Of a stretch of 64,000 bases of DNA, positions 990 through 50,772 are shown in pieces (within the stretch, counting starts at the first letter, position 1; each line of letters starts with the position of its first letter). Under the pieces are notes generated by a model. The model ran no database searches. It was not told the origin of the DNA and was given only the letters and a program-made list of their open reading frames with translations. This DNA comes from Desulfarculaceae bacterium. Its GTDB lineage: Bacteria; Desulfobacterota; Desulfarculia; Desulfarculales; Desulfarculaceae. A program made the translations under genes and the position numbers. The stretch lies in the NCBI GenBank assembly GCA_021737645.1, contig JAIPDO010000008.1, positions 1 through 64,000 of the forward strand. Reading direction: 5' to 3'.

Positions 990-1133
990 GTACTCATGAC
1001 GATTGACCCTTTTAGTCCGAATATACTATGATTTTATGGGCCATAAGGCCTGCTTACTCCCCCGCCGAAACCTTCGGTAGCGAATGAATTGACGCCGATA
1101 AACGCTTCGCCGGCCAACCAAAAAGGCGAACCC

Positions 1134-1820
1134 GTGGAGAGCACCGTGGAGGCTCGGGCCCAACTGTTCCAAGACGCAATGGGCTTCAGCGGCATATCGG
1201 GGCTGGAAATTAAGAAGTTGGCCGCCATGGCCACCATGCAGCGCTTCAGCAAAGGGCAGATGGTCTTTGAGCAGGATCAGCCCTGCGACTATTTCCATCT
1301 GGTGGCCTCTGGGTTGGTAAAGGTCTACATCTGCTCAGCCAGCGGTTACCGCATGACCTACCTTTTGGCCCGCCGGGGTGAGCCCCTCAACCTGGTCGGC
1401 CCCTTCACCGGCGACCCTCGGTTCTTGTGCGCCGAGGCCATGCAGGCCACCGAGGTGGCCCACATCCCCCGCCACGACTTCGTGCGCTTCGTGGCCGCCA
1501 ACCCCATCCTGTTCAGCAACATAATGGCCATCTTGAGCAAGGCGGTGGACAGCGCCAACAGCCGGCTGATCGATATGGTGGAAAAGCGGGTGGAAGAACG
1601 GCTGCTCAGGGTGCTGCTCACCCTGCTGGATAAATTCGGCTCGGAGATAAGGCTGACCAGCGCCGAGTTGGCCGAGTTGGCCGGGACCACGGTGGAGACC
1701 ACCCTGCGCACCATGGCCCGCTTGCGCAGCCTGGGCATTATCGAATCAGAACGGGGCCAGATAAAAATCATCCGGCCGGCTTCCCTTAAAAACCCCGAAC
1801 GCCTGCCCCTTTGGGTTTAA
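1134..1820 (+). CDS. Crp/Fnr-family transcriptional regulator
   Basis: Ligand-responsive DNA-binding regulator. An N-terminal cyclic-nucleotide-binding-type beta barrel (about residues 20-130) is followed by a long dimerisation helix and a C-terminal Crp-type winged helix (about 165-215, with the helix-turn-helix around ELAELAGTTVETTLRTM). No FNR-like N-terminal cysteine cluster is present, so an oxygen-sensing 4Fe-4S is unlikely. The start is uncertain: GTG at 1134 has AAAAGG 7 bases upstream, while an in-frame TTG at 1089 lacks a ribosome site. The gene lies just before the TRAP/CoA-ligase/hydroxylase cluster, and a Crp-geometry palindrome at 1936-1951 lies between them, so it is the obvious candidate regulator of that cluster (inference). 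Confidence 0.9.
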   Translation: MESTVEARAQLFQDAMGFSGISGLEIKKLAAMATMQRFSKGQMVFEQDQPCDYFHLVASGLVKVYICSASGYRMTYLLARRGEPLNLVGPFTGDPRFLCAEAMQATEVAHIPRHDFVRFVAANPILFSNIMAILSKAVDSANSRLIDMVEKRVEERLLRVLLTLLDKFGSEIRLTSAELAELAGTTVETTLRTMARLRSLGIIESERGQIKIIRPASLKNPERLPLWV

Positions 1821-34379: not shown

Positions 34380-35470
34380 CAGATTATCAGCATGGCATCG
34401 CCGTAGCTATAGAAACGATAACTCCGCTCCATGGCTTGACGATAGGCGTCTAATATACGCTCCCGCCCGGCCAGGGCGGCGACCAGCATGAGCAAGGTGG
34501 TGCGGGGCAGATGAAAATTGGTTATCAGGCCGTCGGCCACCCGGAAGCTGTGCCCCGGCGCGATGAGCAGGTCGCACCATCCGGCTCCAGGCTGGGGCAC
34601 CCCTCCCGGTCCGGGGCGCCACTCCAAAGAGCGCAAGCTGGTGGTGCCCACGGCGATGACCCGCCCGCCCCGCTTCTTGGCCCTGGCCACGGCCAGAGCC
34701 GCCTCGGGGGAAATTTCCACCCACTCCGAATGCAGGCGGCCCGAGGCCAGTTGAGCAGGGTCCGGCTCGGCAAAGGTGCCGTAGCCCACGTGCAGGGTCA
34801 GGGAGGTGTGCTCCACCCCCCGGCGGGCCAGAGCGGAAAGCAGCTCACGGCTCAGGTGCAGCCCGGCGGTAGGGGCGGCCACCGCCCCCGGCTGGGAGGC
34901 GTATACCGTCTGGTAGCGGGAGGCGTCCCGGGCGTCCGGCCCTTGAGGCCGCTTTATATAAGGCGGCAGCGGCGTGGCTCCCCGGTCGGCGGCCAATCCC
35001 AGGGCCGGAGCGGGAAACTCCACCAGGGCCCGGCCCCGCTCGCCCCGCTCCAACACCCGCACCCAAACCTCCGGCTCACCGCCAAGACGCAGGCGTGCGC
35101 CCGCGGCGATGGTCTTGTGGGAGCGCAACAGGCACTGGTGCACCTCGCGGCCGTCCTCCAGGCGTTTCTGGGGCTGGGCCGGGGACAGCAGCAAAATCTC
35201 CACCCGCCCTCCGGTGGGCTTGGCCGCCATAAGGCGGGCCGGCACAACCCTGGTGTCGTTGAGCACCAGAAGGTCGCCGGGCCTGAGCAAACGGGTTAGC
35301 CCCGCCACCTTGTGATGTCCGCTCGGCCCCTGATAGCGGGGAAGATGCAGCAACCGGGCCTGCACTCGCCGCCGGGCCGGAGCCTGGGCTATGAGCTCCG
35401 GGGGCAGCTCATAGTCGTAGGCGGCCAGAAGGTCCTGGGGGCCGCTGTTGTGGGGGATGGTCTCCGCCAT
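34379..35470 (-). CDS. queA: S-adenosylmethionine:tRNA ribosyltransferase-isomerase (QueA)
   Basis: Transfers and isomerises the ribosyl part of SAM to preQ1 in tRNA, giving epoxyqueuosine. The 363-residue product starts with the family motif AYDYELPPELIAQ (about 15-27), continues with GDLLVLNDTRV (about 70-80) and ends with the TSLRSLEW and HLPRTTLLMLV stretches that are highly conserved. First gene of the queA-tgt-yajC-secDF-parAB run, so the promoter must lie in 35471-35769. Confidence 0.96.
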   Translation of the reverse strand: MAETIPHNSGPQDLLAAYDYELPPELIAQAPARRRVQARLLHLPRYQGPSGHHKVAGLTRLLRPGDLLVLNDTRVVPARLMAAKPTGGRVEILLLSPAQPQKRLEDGREVHQCLLRSHKTIAAGARLRLGGEPEVWVRVLERGERGRALVEFPAPALGLAADRGATPLPPYIKRPQGPDARDASRYQTVYASQPGAVAAPTAGLHLSRELLSALARRGVEHTSLTLHVGYGTFAEPDPAQLASGRLHSEWVEISPEAALAVARAKKRGGRVIAVGTTSLRSLEWRPGPGGVPQPGAGWCDLLIAPGHSFRVADGLITNFHLPRTTLLMLVAALAGRERILDAYRQAMERSYRFYSYGDAMLII

Positions 35471-35769
35471 GAATCAAGCTTTTGGTTCCGCCAAGGGCCT
35501 GCCAAGATATAGTTGCGGCATATTAAATAGTTAGCTACGTTAACCCCATAGAGGGATTACTGCGTTGGAACTATGCATATTACGGCGAGCCCCCCTGCTT
35601 GTCAAGGAAGGCGCGACACGACAACCGCTTTAATCCAAAGGACTTGAGGGTTTTTGCTTGACAGAAAAGGGCTGTGCAAACAACCATAGGCAGGTGCTAT
35701 CACCAAAGGCATATATTATTACTGAACGCCCAGCCGGGCGCGCACACAACCCCAAACCGGAGTGGGCAT
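35471..35769. promoter_or_regulatory. Divergent intergenic region between queA and the small zinc-ribbon gene
   Basis: No gene seen. It is AT-rich at 35505-35580 and must hold the queA promoter (leftward). A TTGACA at 35658-35663 points rightward, but the best -10 match (CATAGG or further TATATT) is badly spaced, so I do not assign a promoter. Confidence 0.4.
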
Positions 35770-35946
35770 ATGGCCATTTACGTTAAGTGTAAAACTGAAG
35801 ACTGCGGCAATGAAATCTTGGCGCCGGAATACGCCCAGACCCCCTTTGAAAAACTGGAAGACGCCCTGCACAAAAAGAACTACTACCTTTGCCCCAAGTG
35901 CGGGAAGGTCAATCCTTATCTCCAGGAAGACCACTTCGAGAAGTAG
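35770..35946 (+). CDS. Small zinc-ribbon protein
   Basis: A 58-residue cytoplasmic protein of unknown function. Two cysteine pairs, CKTEDC (about 7-12) and CPKC (about 44-47), form a likely zinc ribbon separated by a helical, charged segment. It begins at ATG 35770, where the conserved-looking sequence starts; the frame is open upstream to 35674 but lacks a ribosome site. A strong terminator follows, so it is a single-gene unit. Confidence 0.75.
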   Translation: MAIYVKCKTEDCGNEILAPEYAQTPFEKLEDALHKKNYYLCPKCGKVNPYLQEDHFEK

Positions 35947-35963
35947 GCGGAGACTTGCCGTAT

Positions 35964-35996
35964 TGGGGCGGGCCGACAGGCTCGCCCCATTATTTT
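35964..35996 (+). terminator. Intrinsic terminator after the zinc-ribbon gene
   Basis: An 11-base stem (35964-35974 with 35979-35989, one G-U pair) with loop GACA is followed by TTATTTT. It also separates the convergent gene at 36005. Confidence 0.85.
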
Positions 35997-36004
35997 GCCT
36001 GGTT

Positions 36005-36700
36005 CTAGGATTGTTTGCGATCGGCTTCGCTGATGGAGCGTATGCCCAAGAGCACCAGAAAGCGCAAGAACTCGATAAACAGCAGGCCCACCACTACCAA
36101 GGCGGTTACCGAAAGGATGCGGGGCAAGAAATTATCCCAGTTCCACTCGTTGCCCGAAAAAACACCCTCGTCCTCGAACAGCCAGCCTAGAACACCGGCG
36201 GCCCGCCCCGAAGGCGTTCTGAAGCCCTGACCCTGCAACAGGCCCACCGCAGACTCCTGCTCCACGTAGCCGGGGAACAGCAACTTGAGCATCAAGGGGA
36301 TGCCCGGTCCGGGAAGGTTGGTATAGACACGGCTCTTTTGCTCGGCCTCGGCGCTCTGCAAATGGCGATGCATGGCCCGGCTATAGAGCAGGAACATCTG
36401 AGCGGACAACAGAGGCAGGACGGTGGTCGTGGTGCGCCCGAAGGCCTCCACTTCCACCAGATGCTCATCGCGAATCATTTCATCGGTCAAAAGGGGGACC
36501 ATGTCGGTCTGGCGGTATATCCGCCAACCCATGCCCCTCTCGGGCGGGTGGTCGGAGAAGTCGTCCAGGCGGATGGCTTCGCCAAGCAGCTGTGCGGTGT
36601 AGATGCGTTGTGCGGTGTCAACGAAAGACCGGGCGGGAGGGGCGGCCACCCCGAGCACTAAGACCATCACCAAGATTGCCAAGCCCAAGCGGGATATCAA
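36005..36700 (-). CDS. Exported/membrane protein of unknown function
   Basis: A 231-residue protein that I do not recognise. It has a signal peptide (about 1-24), an extracytoplasmic region of about 160 residues and a C-terminal membrane helix (about 196-220) followed by a short basic tail. TTG 36700 is chosen because GGGAG is 7 bases upstream and the signal peptide then begins at residue 1; the open frame extends to 36790. No catalytic motif is visible. It could be an envelope anchor protein. Confidence 0.65.
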   Translation of the reverse strand: MISRLGLAILVMVLVLGVAAPPARSFVDTAQRIYTAQLLGEAIRLDDFSDHPPERGMGWRIYRQTDMVPLLTDEMIRDEHLVEVEAFGRTTTTVLPLLSAQMFLLYSRAMHRHLQSAEAEQKSRVYTNLPGPGIPLMLKLLFPGYVEQESAVGLLQGQGFRTPSGRAAGVLGWLFEDEGVFSGNEWNWDNFLPRILSVTALVVVGLLFIEFLRFLVLLGIRSISEADRKQS

Positions 36701-45918: not shown

Positions 45919-46351
45919 CTCCCTTTCCCTCCTTGCCCCCCCGTTCCTTACGGTCTAGGGAAACAAAATTAAAGCGAACGGATTACGTCGGTTCGCACCT
46001 CACCGCCTTGGCCCAGCGGACTACGTCGGACACGGAAAATCCGCAGGCAGCAGACGGTGTTTTTCTAGGATGGTTTGCGGCGCGAGGCAGGATGGTGACA
46101 GCGGACCCGTAGCAAAGGTTCAAGAGACCAGCGCAGATTGTGCTTAAGTGCTCGTCACACCGCATTTACTGGCTAATCATGCAATTTTTAAATGCTTACG
46201 GTCAAATCGGTTTTACCTATATTCATCTATAGTTTTAATATATTTTAATGCCCTGGGGCCAATCTGGCCTTTACAGTTGTCCAGGGCCCGCTTTACACCT
46301 TCCTTTGGCCCCCATATACTCCTAGAACGTCCTTTACGGAGCCGAAACCAG
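45919..46351. promoter_or_regulatory. 433-base divergent region between hydrogenase and chelatase genes
   Basis: No gene seen. The hydrogenase side contains the inverted repeat at 45974-45996 and a direct repeat (45979-45991 and 46017-46029). The chelatase side has an AT-rich tract (about 46180-46250) that probably holds the rightward promoter. Confidence 0.5.
45974..46029. promoter_or_regulatory. Repeat array upstream of the hydrogenase operon (candidate operators)
   Basis: CGGATTACGTCGG at 45979-45991 recurs as CGGACTACGTCGG at 46017-46029 (12 of 13 identical, 38 bases apart). The first copy lies within the inverted repeat GCGAAC/GTTCGC at 45974-45996. Both are 56-112 bases upstream of the small subunit start. 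Confidence 0.5.
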
Positions 46352-48385
46352 GTGAAACCTCCCCGCAACATCCCCTCTGCCGCCCAGACGGCCTACCCCT
46401 TCACGGCCATCGTGGGGCAACAGCGGCTCAAAACAGCCCTTTTGCTCCTGGGGGTGGACCTGGGGCTGGGTGGGGTTTTGCTGCGAGGTGAAAAAGGCAC
46501 TGCCAAGTCCACCGCCGCCCGCGCCCTGGCCCGGCTTTTGCCGCCCCTGCCCATAGTGGAGGGCTGCCCGGTGGGCTGCGACCCTGCCGGGCCGCTGTGC
46601 TCTGCCTGCTCCGCCCGACCCGGTCCCTTGCCGGTGCTCCAAGTTCCCACTCCCTTTGTGGAATTGCCCCTGGGGGCAAGTGAAGACTGCCTGGCGGGCA
46701 GCCTGGACCTGGGTGCGGCGGTGCGCCGGGGAAAGCTCAGCGCCCGCCTGGGGTTGCTGGCCCGGGCCAACCGGGGGGTGCTCTACATCGACGAGGTAAA
46801 CCTCCTGCCGCCCCATCTGGCCCACCTGGTGCTGGACGCGGCGGCCAGTGGCGTGGCCGTGCTGGAGCGCGAAGGCCTCAGCCTGTCCCACCCGGCCCGC
46901 TTCGCCCTGGTTGCCTCTTATAACCCCGAGGAAGGCCCCCTGGGCCCCCAACTGGCCGACCGCTTCGGCCTGTGCGTGCGAGTCAAAGGAGAGCAGGACC
47001 CGGCGCGCAGGGTGGAAGTGCTCCAGCGACGCCTGGCCTTTGAAAGCGACCCAATCGCCTTTGCCCGCCAGTGGAAGCAGGAAGAAGACGGCCTGCGCGC
47101 CCGCATCGTCAAGGCCCGCGAGTTTTTGCCCCTGGTCGAGGTGGGACCCGAGGCGCGTGGCCAAGCCGCCCTGCTGGCGGCCCGGGCGGCCAGCCAGGGC
47201 CAGCGGGGCGAGTTGGCCTGCATCCGCGCGGCGCGAGCCCTGGCCGCCTGGCGCGGCCTGGAGAGCGTCACCACCGAGTTGGTGGACGAGGTGGCTCCCC
47301 TGGCCCTCACCCACCGGGCCAGGGAGGGCCAGAGCGTAGCGCCCCCTCCCCTGCCCAGGGTGCTGCGCGAACAGCTGCCGCCCGAGGAAGTCAAGCCCAC
47401 CCGCGCCGAACCGGTGGAGCAGCAGATGCAAAAGAGCGGCGGCCAACCCGGCCAGGAGCGGGGCCTGCGCATCCTGAGCCCCGGCGAAGTGCGCCCGGTG
47501 GCTACCCGCCTGCCCGCCAGGGAAGCCACCAGCCGGGTGCAGGCGGGCCGCCGGGACAGCCGGGAGATCACCGGCGCTCGGGGCCGCTACATCCGGGCCT
47601 CGTCTCAACGCCTGGGCCGGGGCCTGGCCCTGGACGCCACCTTCCGGGCCGCCGCGCCCCATCAGAAAAGCCGCCGCACCCCGGACGGCCCGGCCCTGGT
47701 GGTGAGGGAGCCGGACATCCGCGAAAAGGTGCACGCCGCCCGGCGTGGCCGCCTGCTTTTGTTCTGCGTGGACGCCTCGGGCTCCATGAACGCGGCCGCC
47801 CGCATGAAAACCACCAAGTCCGCGGTGCTGGGGGTGCTCACCGAGGCCTACCAAAAGCGCGACCGGGTGGGGCTGGTGGCCTTTGGCGGCAACGGGTCGC
47901 GGGAGCTTTTGCCCCCCACCTCCAGTGTGGAGGTGGCCCGGCGCATGCTGGCCGAACTGCCCACCGGCGGCAAGACTCCTCTGGCCGCCGGGCTGGTCAG
48001 TCTGGCCGCCGTGTTGGAGCGGGAACTGGCCGCCGACCCCAAGCTGACCCCCCTGGTCATCATCATGACCGACGGACGGCCCAACGTGCCCTTGGCCGCC
48101 AGCCAAGGAGTGAGCTATGATCCGGAAAAAGCGGGCAACAAGGGCGGCGGCTGGGGCGACGGCTGGGGCGACGGCGGCTATGCCGACCGGGAGGTGCTAA
48201 ACCTGGCTCGGCGCTTGAACGCCAGCTTTAGGGCCCGCTTCGTGGTGGTGGACACCGACACCGGGCATCACCACGAGATAAACTTGTGCCGGGCCATGGC
48301 CGAATATTTGGGAGCCTATTGCGTGTCCCTGCGCCGCCTGACCACCGAGGGGGTGCTGGATTTGGTGCGGCGGCATTGGGCGTGA
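46352..48385 (+). CDS. Magnesium/cobalt-chelatase-type AAA ATPase fused to a VWA domain (ChlI-ChlD-like)
   Basis: ATPase motor and integrin-I-domain subunit of a metal chelatase, 677 residues. An N-terminal AAA+ domain has Walker A GEKGTAKST (46-54), a four-cysteine insert (CPVGCDP and CSAC, about 70-90) and Walker B VLYIDEVNLL. A Pro/Gln-rich linker (about 345-420) leads to a VWA domain with the MIDAS motif DASGS (about 474-478). The start GTG 46352 has ACGGAG about 10 bases upstream; the frame is open to 46148 but without support. It pairs naturally with the ChlI-like gene at 49.7 kb; the large catalytic subunit (CobN/ChlH) is not in view. Confidence 0.9.
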   Translation: MKPPRNIPSAAQTAYPFTAIVGQQRLKTALLLLGVDLGLGGVLLRGEKGTAKSTAARALARLLPPLPIVEGCPVGCDPAGPLCSACSARPGPLPVLQVPTPFVELPLGASEDCLAGSLDLGAAVRRGKLSARLGLLARANRGVLYIDEVNLLPPHLAHLVLDAAASGVAVLEREGLSLSHPARFALVASYNPEEGPLGPQLADRFGLCVRVKGEQDPARRVEVLQRRLAFESDPIAFARQWKQEEDGLRARIVKAREFLPLVEVGPEARGQAALLAARAASQGQRGELACIRAARALAAWRGLESVTTELVDEVAPLALTHRAREGQSVAPPPLPRVLREQLPPEEVKPTRAEPVEQQMQKSGGQPGQERGLRILSPGEVRPVATRLPAREATSRVQAGRRDSREITGARGRYIRASSQRLGRGLALDATFRAAAPHQKSRRTPDGPALVVREPDIREKVHAARRGRLLLFCVDASGSMNAAARMKTTKSAVLGVLTEAYQKRDRVGLVAFGGNGSRELLPPTSSVEVARRMLAELPTGGKTPLAAGLVSLAAVLERELAADPKLTPLVIIMTDGRPNVPLAASQGVSYDPEKAGNKGGGWGDGWGDGGYADREVLNLARRLNASFRARFVVVDTDTGHHHEINLCRAMAEYLGAYCVSLRRLTTEGVLDLVRRHWA

Positions 48386-48449
48386 TGCGCTAAGTTAAAA
48401 AGTATGATGGAATATTAACTGCTGATATTTTTTATATGGAGGAGGTTCA

Positions 48450-49172
48450 ATGGCTGGGCAAACGACTGGTTTTCCGCATTTCAAGCCAACTGCTAGCCGT
48501 GCTCAGAATGGCGTAGCTATGATTTTTGACTTGGAAGGATTCTCCAACTTTTTCGGACAACCAGACGTTCACGAATACATCCCGACATACCTAAACAAAA
48601 TTTTCACGGCTATCGATATTTGCATTTTTGGGGGAAGCGCTTTTTGGCTGGATGATGAACTGGATGGCGACCCTCTGATACCCCGCCCAGTGCACAGGAA
48701 ATTTTTAGGTGATGGCGCATTATATGTGTGGCTACCACAAAAAAATAAAGACGCATTCGATACTAATTTCACAACGTATCTTCCCAACAGACTATGGACT
48801 ATAAAAAACCAGTTTAGTGCAATTAATAAATCATGCGCTGACGACATTCCTCTTTTAGAGCTACCTCAAAGGATTCGTTTCGGAATTGCGCGAGGCACAA
48901 TATATGAACTTAGTTTTGCCCATAGTAAAACCAAAGAATATATCGGGTATTGCATCAATTTGGCGTCACGCCTCCAAAATTACTGCAAAGAATTAGGCTT
49001 CATTGTTTCAGCGAGGATGAGAATTGGACAAGAAGTGGTAGACAAACACAACTATTTAAAAGTTGTTGCCACCAAAATTAAAGGATTTCCGCGAGAAATT
49101 GTTATCGTTGACAAAAGAGAATTTGAGTCGCTGTCCGATGACAAAAGAAACGACTTATTTGAAGCCCTGTAG
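48450..49172 (+). CDS. Stand-alone class III nucleotide cyclase-like protein (AT-rich)
   Basis: A 240-residue protein I recognise as a class III adenylate/guanylate cyclase homology domain without sensor or membrane parts. Asp27 (MIFDLEGF) and Asp88 (FLGDG) match the two metal-binding Asp; Lys84 and Glu163 lie at the base-selecting positions; Asn170 and Arg174 (NLASR) match the transition-state pair. All core residues are thus present, so it may be active. The product (cAMP, cGMP or another) is uncertain. The gene is much AT-richer than its neighbours, about 35-42% GC by eye, and has a strong ribosome site GGAGGAGG. It interrupts the chelatase genes, a sign of transfer. Confidence 0.72.
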   Translation: MAGQTTGFPHFKPTASRAQNGVAMIFDLEGFSNFFGQPDVHEYIPTYLNKIFTAIDICIFGGSAFWLDDELDGDPLIPRPVHRKFLGDGALYVWLPQKNKDAFDTNFTTYLPNRLWTIKNQFSAINKSCADDIPLLELPQRIRFGIARGTIYELSFAHSKTKEYIGYCINLASRLQNYCKELGFIVSARMRIGQEVVDKHNYLKVVATKIKGFPREIVIVDKREFESLSDDKRNDLFEAL

Positions 49173-49219
49173 TCGACTAGACATGTAAACGGCGCAATCT
49201 TTCGGCAAAGTCAGCACTT

Positions 49220-49717
49220 ATGCAACAGTACGTGAATATGGCCAAACAAAGGGGACTGACCGACGCGGTGCTCCTCAAGCCCGAGCGGGTCTTCTTCGAT
49301 CCTCGCGCGGTGCTCAAGTGCCGCTGGGGGTGCGAGGACTTTGCCAAGCGCACCATAAAATGCGGCTCCCGGGGACTTAGCCACGCCGAATGCGTGGAGA
49401 TGGTGGGCCGCTACAAGAATATCCTGCTGCTGCACGGCCACGACGCCCGCCAACTTAGCAAGGCGGTGCTGGCCGTGGAGAGGGCCGCCTTTCTGGACGG
49501 CCATTACTTCGCCTTTGGCCTGCGCTACTGCAAGCTGTGCAAGGCCTGCTCGGTGGACCAGGGCGAGGCCTGCGCGCAGCCGGACAAGGTGCGCCCCTGC
49601 GACCAGGCCATGGGCATCGACGTGTACCGCACCGCCCGTGAGGCGGGTTTGCCTTGCTACGTGTTACAGAGCAAAGACGAGCAGCAAAACCGCTACGGCT
49701 TCGTTCTGATTAATTGA
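49220..49717 (+). CDS. DUF2284 metal-binding protein
   Basis: A 165-residue protein of the DUF2284 family. It carries two cysteine groups that suggest a metal or Fe-S site: KCRWGC (about 34-39) with IKCGSRG nearby, and YCKLCKAC (about 104-111) with further Cys in GEACAQPDKVRPC. The function is unknown; the family occurs in anaerobes and often near metal-cofactor genes. It ends at the TGA overlapping a TTG that could start the next gene, so it is transcriptionally coupled to the chelatase ATPase. Confidence 0.85.
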   Translation: MQQYVNMAKQRGLTDAVLLKPERVFFDPRAVLKCRWGCEDFAKRTIKCGSRGLSHAECVEMVGRYKNILLLHGHDARQLSKAVLAVERAAFLDGHYFAFGLRYCKLCKACSVDQGEACAQPDKVRPCDQAMGIDVYRTAREAGLPCYVLQSKDEQQNRYGFVLIN

Positions 49718-49737
49718 GCGCCATAAGGAAAACAGCC

Positions 49738-50772
49738 TTGGACAAGCAAACAACGGCCAAACTCATGAACCACGCAGCCTATCCCTTCGCGGCCATCGTG
49801 GACCAGAACGACATGAAGCTGGCCCTGATCATCAACGTGGTCAATCCCAAGGTGGGCGGCGTTCTTATTCGCGGGGAAAAGGGCACGGCCAAATCCACGG
49901 CGGTGCGGGCCCTGGCCCGGCTGCTCCCCGCCCAGCCCACGGTAGCCGACTGCCCCTACAACTGCGACCCGGCCCTGCCCTGCCCGGCCTGCCAAGCCCG
50001 CCGGGAAGCAGGCGAGACCCTGCCCGTGGAACAGCGCCGAGTGCGGGTGGTGGAGCTGCCGGTGGGAGCCACCGAGGACCGCCTTTTGGGCACCCTGGAC
50101 CTGGAGGCGGCGCTCAGCGAGGGCGAGGCCCGCTTCTCGCCGGGCATTTTGGCGGCGGCCAACCGCCAGATTCTCTACGTGGACGAGGTCAACCTGTTGG
50201 ACGACCACCTGGTGGACGTGCTCTTGGACGCGGCGGCCATGGGGGTCAACACGGTGGAGCGCGAGTCGGTGAGCCTCAGCCACCCAGCGTCCTTCACCCT
50301 GGTGGGCACCATGAACCCCGAGGAGGGGGAGCTACGGCCCCAGCTCACCGACCGCTTCGGCCTGTGCGTGCAGGTCAAGGGCCTGGCCGACCCCGCCCTG
50401 CGCCAAGAGGTCATCGTGCGCCAGCTTGCCTGGGAGGCCGATCCGGCCGGTTTCAGCGCTGCCTGGGGCGACGAGGGCGACGCCATCGGCCAGGCCATCG
50501 CCAGGGCCAGGGAGCTGATGCCCTCGGTGCAGGCCGGGCCGGGAGTGCTGGAGCGGGTGGTGGCGATTAGCCTGGGACTGGGCACCGACGGCCACCGGGG
50601 GGATCTAACCCTGCTCAAGGGCGCGCTGACCCTGGCCGCCTGGGAGGGGCGCACCGAGGCCACTCAGGACGACGTTAATCGAGCGGCGCTGCTGGCCCTG
50701 CCCCACCGCCTGCGGCGGCGTCCCCTGGCCGAAATGGAGTTTGACATCGCCGACAAGATCAAGCGGATCTAG
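49738..50772 (+). CDS. Magnesium chelatase-type AAA ATPase (ChlI/BchI-like)
   Basis: AAA+ ATPase subunit of a metal chelatase, 344 residues. Walker A is GEKGTAKST (46-54), followed by a four-Cys insert (CPYNCDP, CPAC, about 72-88), Walker B ILYVDEVNLL and the sensor region MNPEEGELRPQLTDRFGL. No VWA domain; the fused one is in the gene at 46.4 kb. I prefer TTG 49738 (TAAGGAA about 7 bases upstream) over TTG 49714, which overlaps the DUF2284 stop but lacks a ribosome site. The two ATPases would form the I and D ring that drives metal insertion by an unseen large subunit. Confidence 0.93.
   Translation: MDKQTTAKLMNHAAYPFAAIVDQNDMKLALIINVVNPKVGGVLIRGEKGTAKSTAVRALARLLPAQPTVADCPYNCDPALPCPACQARREAGETLPVEQRRVRVVELPVGATEDRLLGTLDLEAALSEGEARFSPGILAAANRQILYVDEVNLLDDHLVDVLLDAAAMGVNTVERESVSLSHPASFTLVGTMNPEEGELRPQLTDRFGLCVQVKGLADPALRQEVIVRQLAWEADPAGFSAAWGDEGDAIGQAIARARELMPSVQAGPGVLERVVAISLGLGTDGHRGDLTLLKGALTLAAWEGRTEATQDDVNRAALLALPHRLRRRPLAEMEFDIADKIKRI

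What the first reader, a model, noticed from the sequence alone, without database searches (positions are those of the whole stretch)
48450..49172. AT-rich stand-alone class III nucleotide cyclase inside the chelatase island
Asp27, Asp88, Lys84, Asn170 and Arg174 match the catalytic set, so it may be active, but there is no sensor, membrane or effector domain. GC content is clearly lower than in the neighbours, indicating recent transfer. The Pycsar defence systems also use stand-alone class III cyclases (making cCMP or cUMP), but no effector gene is next to this one.
Basis: partly seen in the sequence, partly recalled or inferred. Interest (0 to 1): 0.6.

Follow-up and report, generated by a model that had tools for sequence, protein, structure and literature searches.

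The report
Orphan cyclic-nucleotide enzyme, borrowed gene
A Desulfobacterota-type bacterium carries a lone, foreign-looking gene for an enzyme that probably makes a cyclic-nucleotide signal; it belongs to a rare, undescribed family mostly found in Bacteroidota, twice beside phage-defence genes, and it is kept under selection, but it is not a Pycsar system and its task is unproven.

Summary
ORF 48450-49172 (240 aa) has the full class III nucleotide cyclase catalytic set. Profile comparison (98.8%, E 6e-17) and a confident model (pLDDT 87; Z 17.3 to CyaB) confirm the fold. GC is 41% and GC3 40%, against GC3 of 73-88% in the neighbours. The gene is an ~835-bp single-gene insert between a chelatase gene and a DUF2284 gene. 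Four congeners have nothing there; a fifth (G004) has a different AT-rich insert at the same junction, so the site looks like a small hotspot. Transfer is real but not very recent. A sister species has the same insert at the same junctions, with synonymous divergence like the neighbours' (dS 0.50) and strong purifying selection (dN/dS 0.07).

It is not Pycsar by the features I could test: no effector, no PycC profile match, no pyrimidine-selecting residues, and a ~17-aa insertion between the metal aspartates. The tree cannot exclude common ancestry with PycC. Lys84 plus Glu163 (Asp in distant members) predict ATP as substrate. Only seven members were found, otherwise all in Bacteroidota; two lie beside defence genes. 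Best reading: an active orphan adenylyl-type cyclase of an undescribed mobile family, possibly defence-linked.

The parts
48450..49172 (+). Stand-alone class III nucleotide cyclase, 240 aa (D27 and D88 metal; K84 and E163 base selection; N170 and R174 transition state)
48386..49219 (+). Whole AT-rich insert (GC 0.41), bounded by the chelatase stop codon and the DUF2284 start codon; absent in four congeners, replaced by another insert in a fifth
48440..48445 (+). AGGAGG, probable ribosome-binding site of the cyclase
   Evidence: read from the sequence
48396..48435 (+). A-rich / T-rich inverted repeat before the cyclase, kept in the sister species; folding energy not better than shuffles, so function unclear
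46148..48385 (+). Upstream gene: BchI/BchD-like putative cobaltochelatase subunit (real start probably further in, judging from the sister species' ORF)
49220..49717 (+). Downstream gene: DUF2284 predicted metal-binding protein
49714..50772 (+). Next gene: ChlI/BchI-like chelatase AAA ATPase

Best explanation
The gene encodes an active, soluble, homodimeric class III nucleotide cyclase made of one catalytic domain. It belongs to a small undescribed family that moves as a single gene among Bacteroidota. Once, before two species of this genus split, it entered their lineage at a junction inside a cobalt/magnesium-chelatase operon that also takes up other foreign genes. Mechanism: two chains pair head to tail. 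Asp27 and Asp88 of one chain hold two metal ions, and Asn170 and Arg174 of the other stabilise the transition state. Lys84 and Glu163 read the base, most likely adenine, so ATP becomes cAMP. The product would act on cyclic-nucleotide-binding proteins already present in the cell (ten were found in this genome) or on an unlinked partner. Shown here: family, fold, catalytic residues, insertion, age, selection. Inferred: activity, substrate, dimer, target. Least certain: the biological role. A stress or phage-response signal is thinkable because two of five independent Bacteroidota loci abut defence genes.
For: Catalytic set invariant in all seven members. Profile-profile match to ordinary class III cyclases, 98.8%, E 6.4e-17. 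AF2 model pLDDT 86.8; top structural matches CyaB Z 17.3 and CyaC Z 16.7. Lys84 sits at the adenylyl-cyclase position. The second selector is E in four members and D in three; ACs use K plus D, GCs use E plus varied residues (PMC4215837). dN/dS 0.07, lower than all flanking genes compared (0.09-0.18). Clean empty sites in four congeners, a different AT-rich insert in a fifth. The window pair is sister to two Bacteroidota sequences. Relatives lie 121 bp after IetAS (IetA E 5.7e-75) and before an NsnA-like DUF262 (E 3e-80) plus HEPN pair.
Against: No enzyme assay. Other relatives sit among ordinary genes (dnaK and an IS200-type transposase; a P-type ATPase), so defence linkage is not general. 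One relative is cut by an in-frame stop codon. Glu instead of Asp or Thr at the second selector is unusual, so another base is possible. The AF2 alignment contained known-type class III cyclases, which helps it to that fold. All ten CNBD proteins also occur in congeners without the cyclase, so none is a dedicated partner.
Confidence: 0.6

Rival explanations
1. Orphan Pycsar: a diverged PycC that makes cUMP or cCMP for an effector elsewhere in the genome or since lost.
For: Stand-alone, about 240 aa, foreign, patchy and sometimes in defence islands, like PycC. The tree does not reject a common clade (AU p 0.17 and 0.42).
Against: A PycC profile built from ten Pycsar-type loci gives bit scores under 18 for all seven members; clade-B hhalign probability 3%. 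Selector residues of clades B, D and E (PMC11224242) are absent; adenylyl-type Lys84 is kept; metal Asp spacing is 61 instead of 44. No effector in either genome, and every CNBD protein has an ortholog in at least one cyclase-free congener.
Confidence: 0.1
2. A new, non-Pycsar defence cyclase: a phage cue switches the enzyme on and its purine cyclic nucleotide triggers a resident or unlinked killer protein; the gene travels alone among defence islands and insertion hotspots.
For: Neighbours IetAS and NsnA-like DUF262 + HEPN, NERD, HNH; PIN/antitoxin-like pair beside the Dyadobacter copy; insertion hotspot with two different AT-rich inserts; rare and patchy spread.
Against: Only two or three of six independent loci are defence-linked and no partner is constant; no phage assay; none found in phage, plasmid or viral-contig collections.
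Confidence: 0.25
3. Ordinary regulatory cAMP source: a foreign cyclase that was wired into the host's own CRP-type regulators, perhaps co-expressed with the cobalamin/chelatase operon.
For: Ten resident CNBD proteins and five further class III cyclases, two of these cyclases within 3 kb of a CNBD gene on contigs C78 and C80; strong purifying selection; inserted in the direction of an operon, with its own ribosome-binding site and no promoter-like site found.
Against: No sensor domain to regulate it; congeners do without it; no expression data.
Confidence: 0.3
4. Catalytically dead or decaying remnant of a transferred gene.
For: One relative (G1022) is broken by an in-frame TAG; the Dyadobacter frame ends early near a contig end.
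Against: The window copy and its sister are intact with dN/dS 0.07 over dS 0.5, and all catalytic residues are invariant.
Confidence: 0.05

Closest known systems
Class III adenylyl cyclases of the CyaB / CyaC type (PDB 3r5g, 1wc1)
   Same: Fold over residues 14-224 (Z 17.3 and 16.7), two metal Asp, Asn/Arg pair, Lys before the second Asp, C-terminal KG motif
   Different: Only about 16-18% identity; no sensor or membrane domain; ~17-residue insertion between the metal aspartates; Glu/Asp rather than Thr at the second selector; not recognised by PF00211
Pycsar cyclase PycC (clades A-E)
   Same: Short stand-alone class III cyclase, horizontally spread, sometimes in defence islands
   Different: No effector; PycC profiles score at noise level; no clade B, D or E base-selecting residues; metal Asp spacing 61 vs 44; retains adenylyl-type Lys
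IetAS and NsnA-like (Menshen / PD-T4-2 type) defence modules
   Same: Immediate neighbours of two family members, same strand, 121-181 bp apart
   Different: Those systems are complete without a cyclase as far as known (from memory); neighbourhood does not show that the cyclase is part of them

Membership tests
Class III nucleotide cyclase | Two metal-binding Asp | tested here: met
   D27 and D88 invariant in family and in 32-sequence alignment
Class III nucleotide cyclase | Asn/Arg transition-state pair | tested here: met
   N170 and R174 invariant
Class III nucleotide cyclase | Sequence-profile homology | tested here: met
   hhalign 98.8%, E 6.4e-17; HMM of 42 ordinary domains finds the window protein at E 4.6e-6 for 1e6 sequences
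Class III nucleotide cyclase | Class III catalytic fold | tested here: met
   AF2 pLDDT 86.8, best matches 3r5g Z 17.3, 1wc1 Z 16.7; alignment included class III relatives
Class III nucleotide cyclase | Cyclase activity as homodimer | not testable with these tools
   needs purified protein
Adenylyl (ATP-specific) subtype | Lys plus Asp (or Thr) base selectors | tested here: inconclusive
   Lys84 met in all; second site Glu163 here, Asp in three remote members; register around E163 has a possible two-residue gap
Pycsar (PycC) | Adjacent effector (PycTM or PycTIR with CNBD) | tested here: not met
   flanks are chelatase and DUF2284 genes in both species
Pycsar (PycC) | Significant match to PycC profiles | tested here: not met
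   PADLOC E 0.003-0.06 with unspecific models; own PycC profile at noise level
Pycsar (PycC) | Pyrimidine-selecting residues of clade B (Y, D, R), D (F, K, F) or E (F, R, Q) | tested here: not met
   window has I25, K84, L86, G89, L91 at the corresponding places
Pycsar (PycC) | Common clade with PycC | tested here: inconclusive
   outside the PycC clade in the best tree, but AU p 0.17 and 0.42; clades A, D and E not sampled
Pycsar (PycC) | Makes cUMP or cCMP | not testable with these tools
   needs assay
IetAS / NsnA-type defence system | Core genes next to the cyclase in the window | tested here: not met
   only beside relatives in L211 and L004, not in the window

The most novel reading that the evidence does not exclude
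An undescribed family of single-gene, horizontally mobile class III cyclases that use a purine cyclic nucleotide (probably cAMP) as an anti-phage or stress alarm without a linked effector, by tapping cyclic-nucleotide receptors already in the host; this would be a cyclic-mononucleotide defence branch separate from Pycsar.
Probability: 0.2. Interest if true: 0.75.

Novelty: new variant of a known kind. Interest (0 to 1): 0.45.

Why it matters
Known cyclic-mononucleotide defence (Pycsar) uses cUMP or cCMP with a linked effector. An effector-free, adenylyl-type cyclase that moves alone, is kept under purifying selection and has relatives beside defence modules asks whether cAMP-like signals are also used in this way. 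It is small, probably soluble and easy to assay on four NTPs. It also shows a small insertion hotspot in a metal-chelatase operon, and that PADLOC PycC models alone are poor evidence for Pycsar.

Tried and rejected
GIY-YIG nuclease (Pfam E 0.014): rejected, below cut-off and caused by the YIG-N motif of the cyclase. PADLOC PycC match: rejected as unspecific. First AF2 run on four sequences: pLDDT 34, discarded. CNBD effector unique to cyclase carriers: none; a first pass picked wrong frames for some loci, corrected by six-frame tblastn. Relatives in phages, plasmids and viral contigs: none; the one IMG/VR hit (L207) is a TerC-like membrane protein, and Skermanella (E 0.03) was not followed. 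Upstream hairpin: not better than shuffles; no sigma-70 promoter-like or terminator-like site. PycC chains do not appear among the 50 structural rows shown, which says nothing either way. Papers: Tal et al. 2021 not held; searches for stand-alone class III cyclases with anti-phage role and for IetAS plus cyclase gave nothing relevant. The G004 insert protein has no Pfam, PADLOC, plasmid or viral match.

Full report
What is there. The ORF at 48450-49172 (+) encodes 240 aa, starts with ATG after AGGAGG, and lies between a BchI/BchD-like putative cobaltochelatase gene and a DUF2284 gene, followed by a ChlI-like ATPase. Its GC is 0.414 and GC3 0.396. The seven flanking genes measured have GC3 0.73-0.88, and the stretch is the lowest-GC part of the window.

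Family and fold. Pfam, NCBIfam and PDB sequence searches do not recognise the protein. The catalytic motifs are nevertheless complete: FDLEGF (D27), KFLGDG (K84, D88) and YIGYCINLASR (N170, R174). A profile of seven members matches 42 ordinary class III cyclase domains with 98.8% probability, E 6.4e-17. A model built with 28 class III domains from viral contigs added to the four closest family sequences reached pLDDT 86.8. Its best solved matches are CyaB of P. aeruginosa (Z 17.3, rmsd 2.9, 186 aligned) and CyaC of S. platensis (Z 16.7, rmsd 3.1, 189 aligned). The added sequences help the model towards this fold, so the independent evidence is the profile match and the motifs. A family mark is an insertion between the metal aspartates: spacing 61, against 44 from the published PycC residue numbers for EaPycC D102/D146 and AnPycC D62/D106 (PMC11224242).

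Substrate. Adenylyl cyclases select the base with Lys plus Asp; guanylyl cyclases have Glu instead of Lys and varied residues at the second site (PMC4215837). Here Lys84 is invariant, and the second site is Glu in four members and Asp in three. ATP is therefore the most likely substrate. This is inference from residues, and the alignment near Glu163 could shift by two residues.

Distribution. Among 148 related genomes only the window's own and one congener (G007; same contig as public record L003, 92% identical) have it. Other members are all in Bacteroidota: a Bacteroidetes MAG (49%), Dyadobacter sp. CY343 (45%), and three remote ones in the order of Dyadobacter. In drawn samples of Bacteroidota the family is in 1 of 395, 1 of 70, 2 of 341, 1 of 108 and 4 of 222 genomes, the positive counts including the seed genomes. 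None was found in phage, plasmid or viral collections. The window pair is sister to the two nearest Bacteroidota sequences, in line with an AT-rich donor.

Insertion and age. In congeners G001, G003, G005 and G006 the chelatase stop codon is followed within about a dozen bases by DUF2284. In G000 and G007 the ~835-bp insert sits between them with the same junctions. In G004 the same junction holds a different insert of about 920 bp with GC 0.39, encoding a membrane-anchored protein whose frame appears broken in two. The site therefore looks like a small hotspot. Between G000 and G007 the cyclase has dS 0.50 and dN 0.035 (dN/dS 0.07). Flanking genes have dS 0.36-0.87 and dN/dS 0.09-0.18 (Nei-Gojobori, which is rough at such composition contrast). 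So the gene entered before the two species split, or moved between them long ago, and has been kept functional. 'Recent transfer' is too strong.

Is it Pycsar? Reference PycC proteins came from loci that carry Pycsar effectors or a CNBD gene: L123 and L200 (CNBD plus TIR-like), L192 (CNBD), and L190, L191, L193, L203 (annotated Pycsar effector). L123 matches BcPycC 7r65 at E 3e-48. One of the ten sequences, L122, was assigned to Pycsar only by its upstream membrane protein and its grouping. A profile of these scores the window family at noise level. The window lacks the base-selecting residues published for clades B, D and E. PADLOC PycC models ring on ordinary cyclases widely, so their weak hits mean little. 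The tree puts the family outside the PycC clade, but on a stem so long that a joint clade is not rejected. Membership is therefore not supported; working like a stand-alone signal enzyme remains possible.

Partners. The ten CNBD proteins of the genome all have orthologs in G004 and/or G005, which lack the cyclase, so no dedicated CNBD effector was found in the assembled part (94% complete). Resident receptors are thus available for a cAMP-like product.

Neighbourhoods of relatives. L211: 121 bp after IetS, same strand, IetA upstream. L004: followed by DUF262 (NsnA-like), a HEPN protein, NERD, PLD and HNH/SRA genes. L005: next to a PIN/antitoxin-like pair, then the contig ends. L206 and L212: ordinary genes, with a transposase nearby in L206. 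No partner is constant. The defence link is suggestive, not shown.

Verdict. It is a new variant of a known kind: an undescribed, rare, mobile cyclase family with adenylyl-type selectors. Activity is likely (about 0.85), ATP preference fairly likely (about 0.6), and a defence role possible (about 0.25). These three figures are my judgement.

Noticed in passing
L011:1993-2927 (G004, minus strand): A congener has a different AT-rich (GC 0.39) insert at exactly the same chelatase/DUF2284 junction, encoding an N-terminally membrane-anchored protein in two overlapping frames (probably one broken gene) without any family match.
   Followed up: partly
L211:7014-11437: A family member lies 121 bp downstream of an IetA/IetS defence pair, same strand; could be a three-gene unit.
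   Followed up: partly
L004:5113-11520: A family member opens a defence island: DUF262 (NsnA-like), RiboL-PSP-HEPN, NERD, HTH, PLD, HNH/SRA genes.
   Followed up: partly
L205:1369-2001: A family member between dnaK and an IS200-type transposase gene is cut by an in-frame TAG before its C-terminal part.
   Followed up: partly
(Bacteroidota and own phylum): PADLOC PycC profiles PDLC00734 and PDLC02366 match ordinary multi-domain class III cyclases in many of 151 of 296 and 124 of 297 hit genomes; calls of Pycsar on these models alone would be unreliable.
   Followed up: yes
L123 and L200 (genome G143): Two complete Pycsar-type pairs (CNBD plus TIR-like effector and clade-B PycC) in one genome of the same phylum as the window.
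   Followed up: partly
window 48396-48435: A-rich/T-rich inverted repeat just upstream of the cyclase, kept in the sister species with changes that largely keep pairing; energy not significant.
   Followed up: partly
window 1089-1820: Crp/Fnr-type cyclic-nucleotide-binding regulator on the same contig; conserved in congeners without the cyclase.
   Followed up: partly
window 35461-36180: The only other 720-bp stretch of the window under 52% GC, upstream of a queA-like gene; mostly without a clear gene.
   Followed up: no
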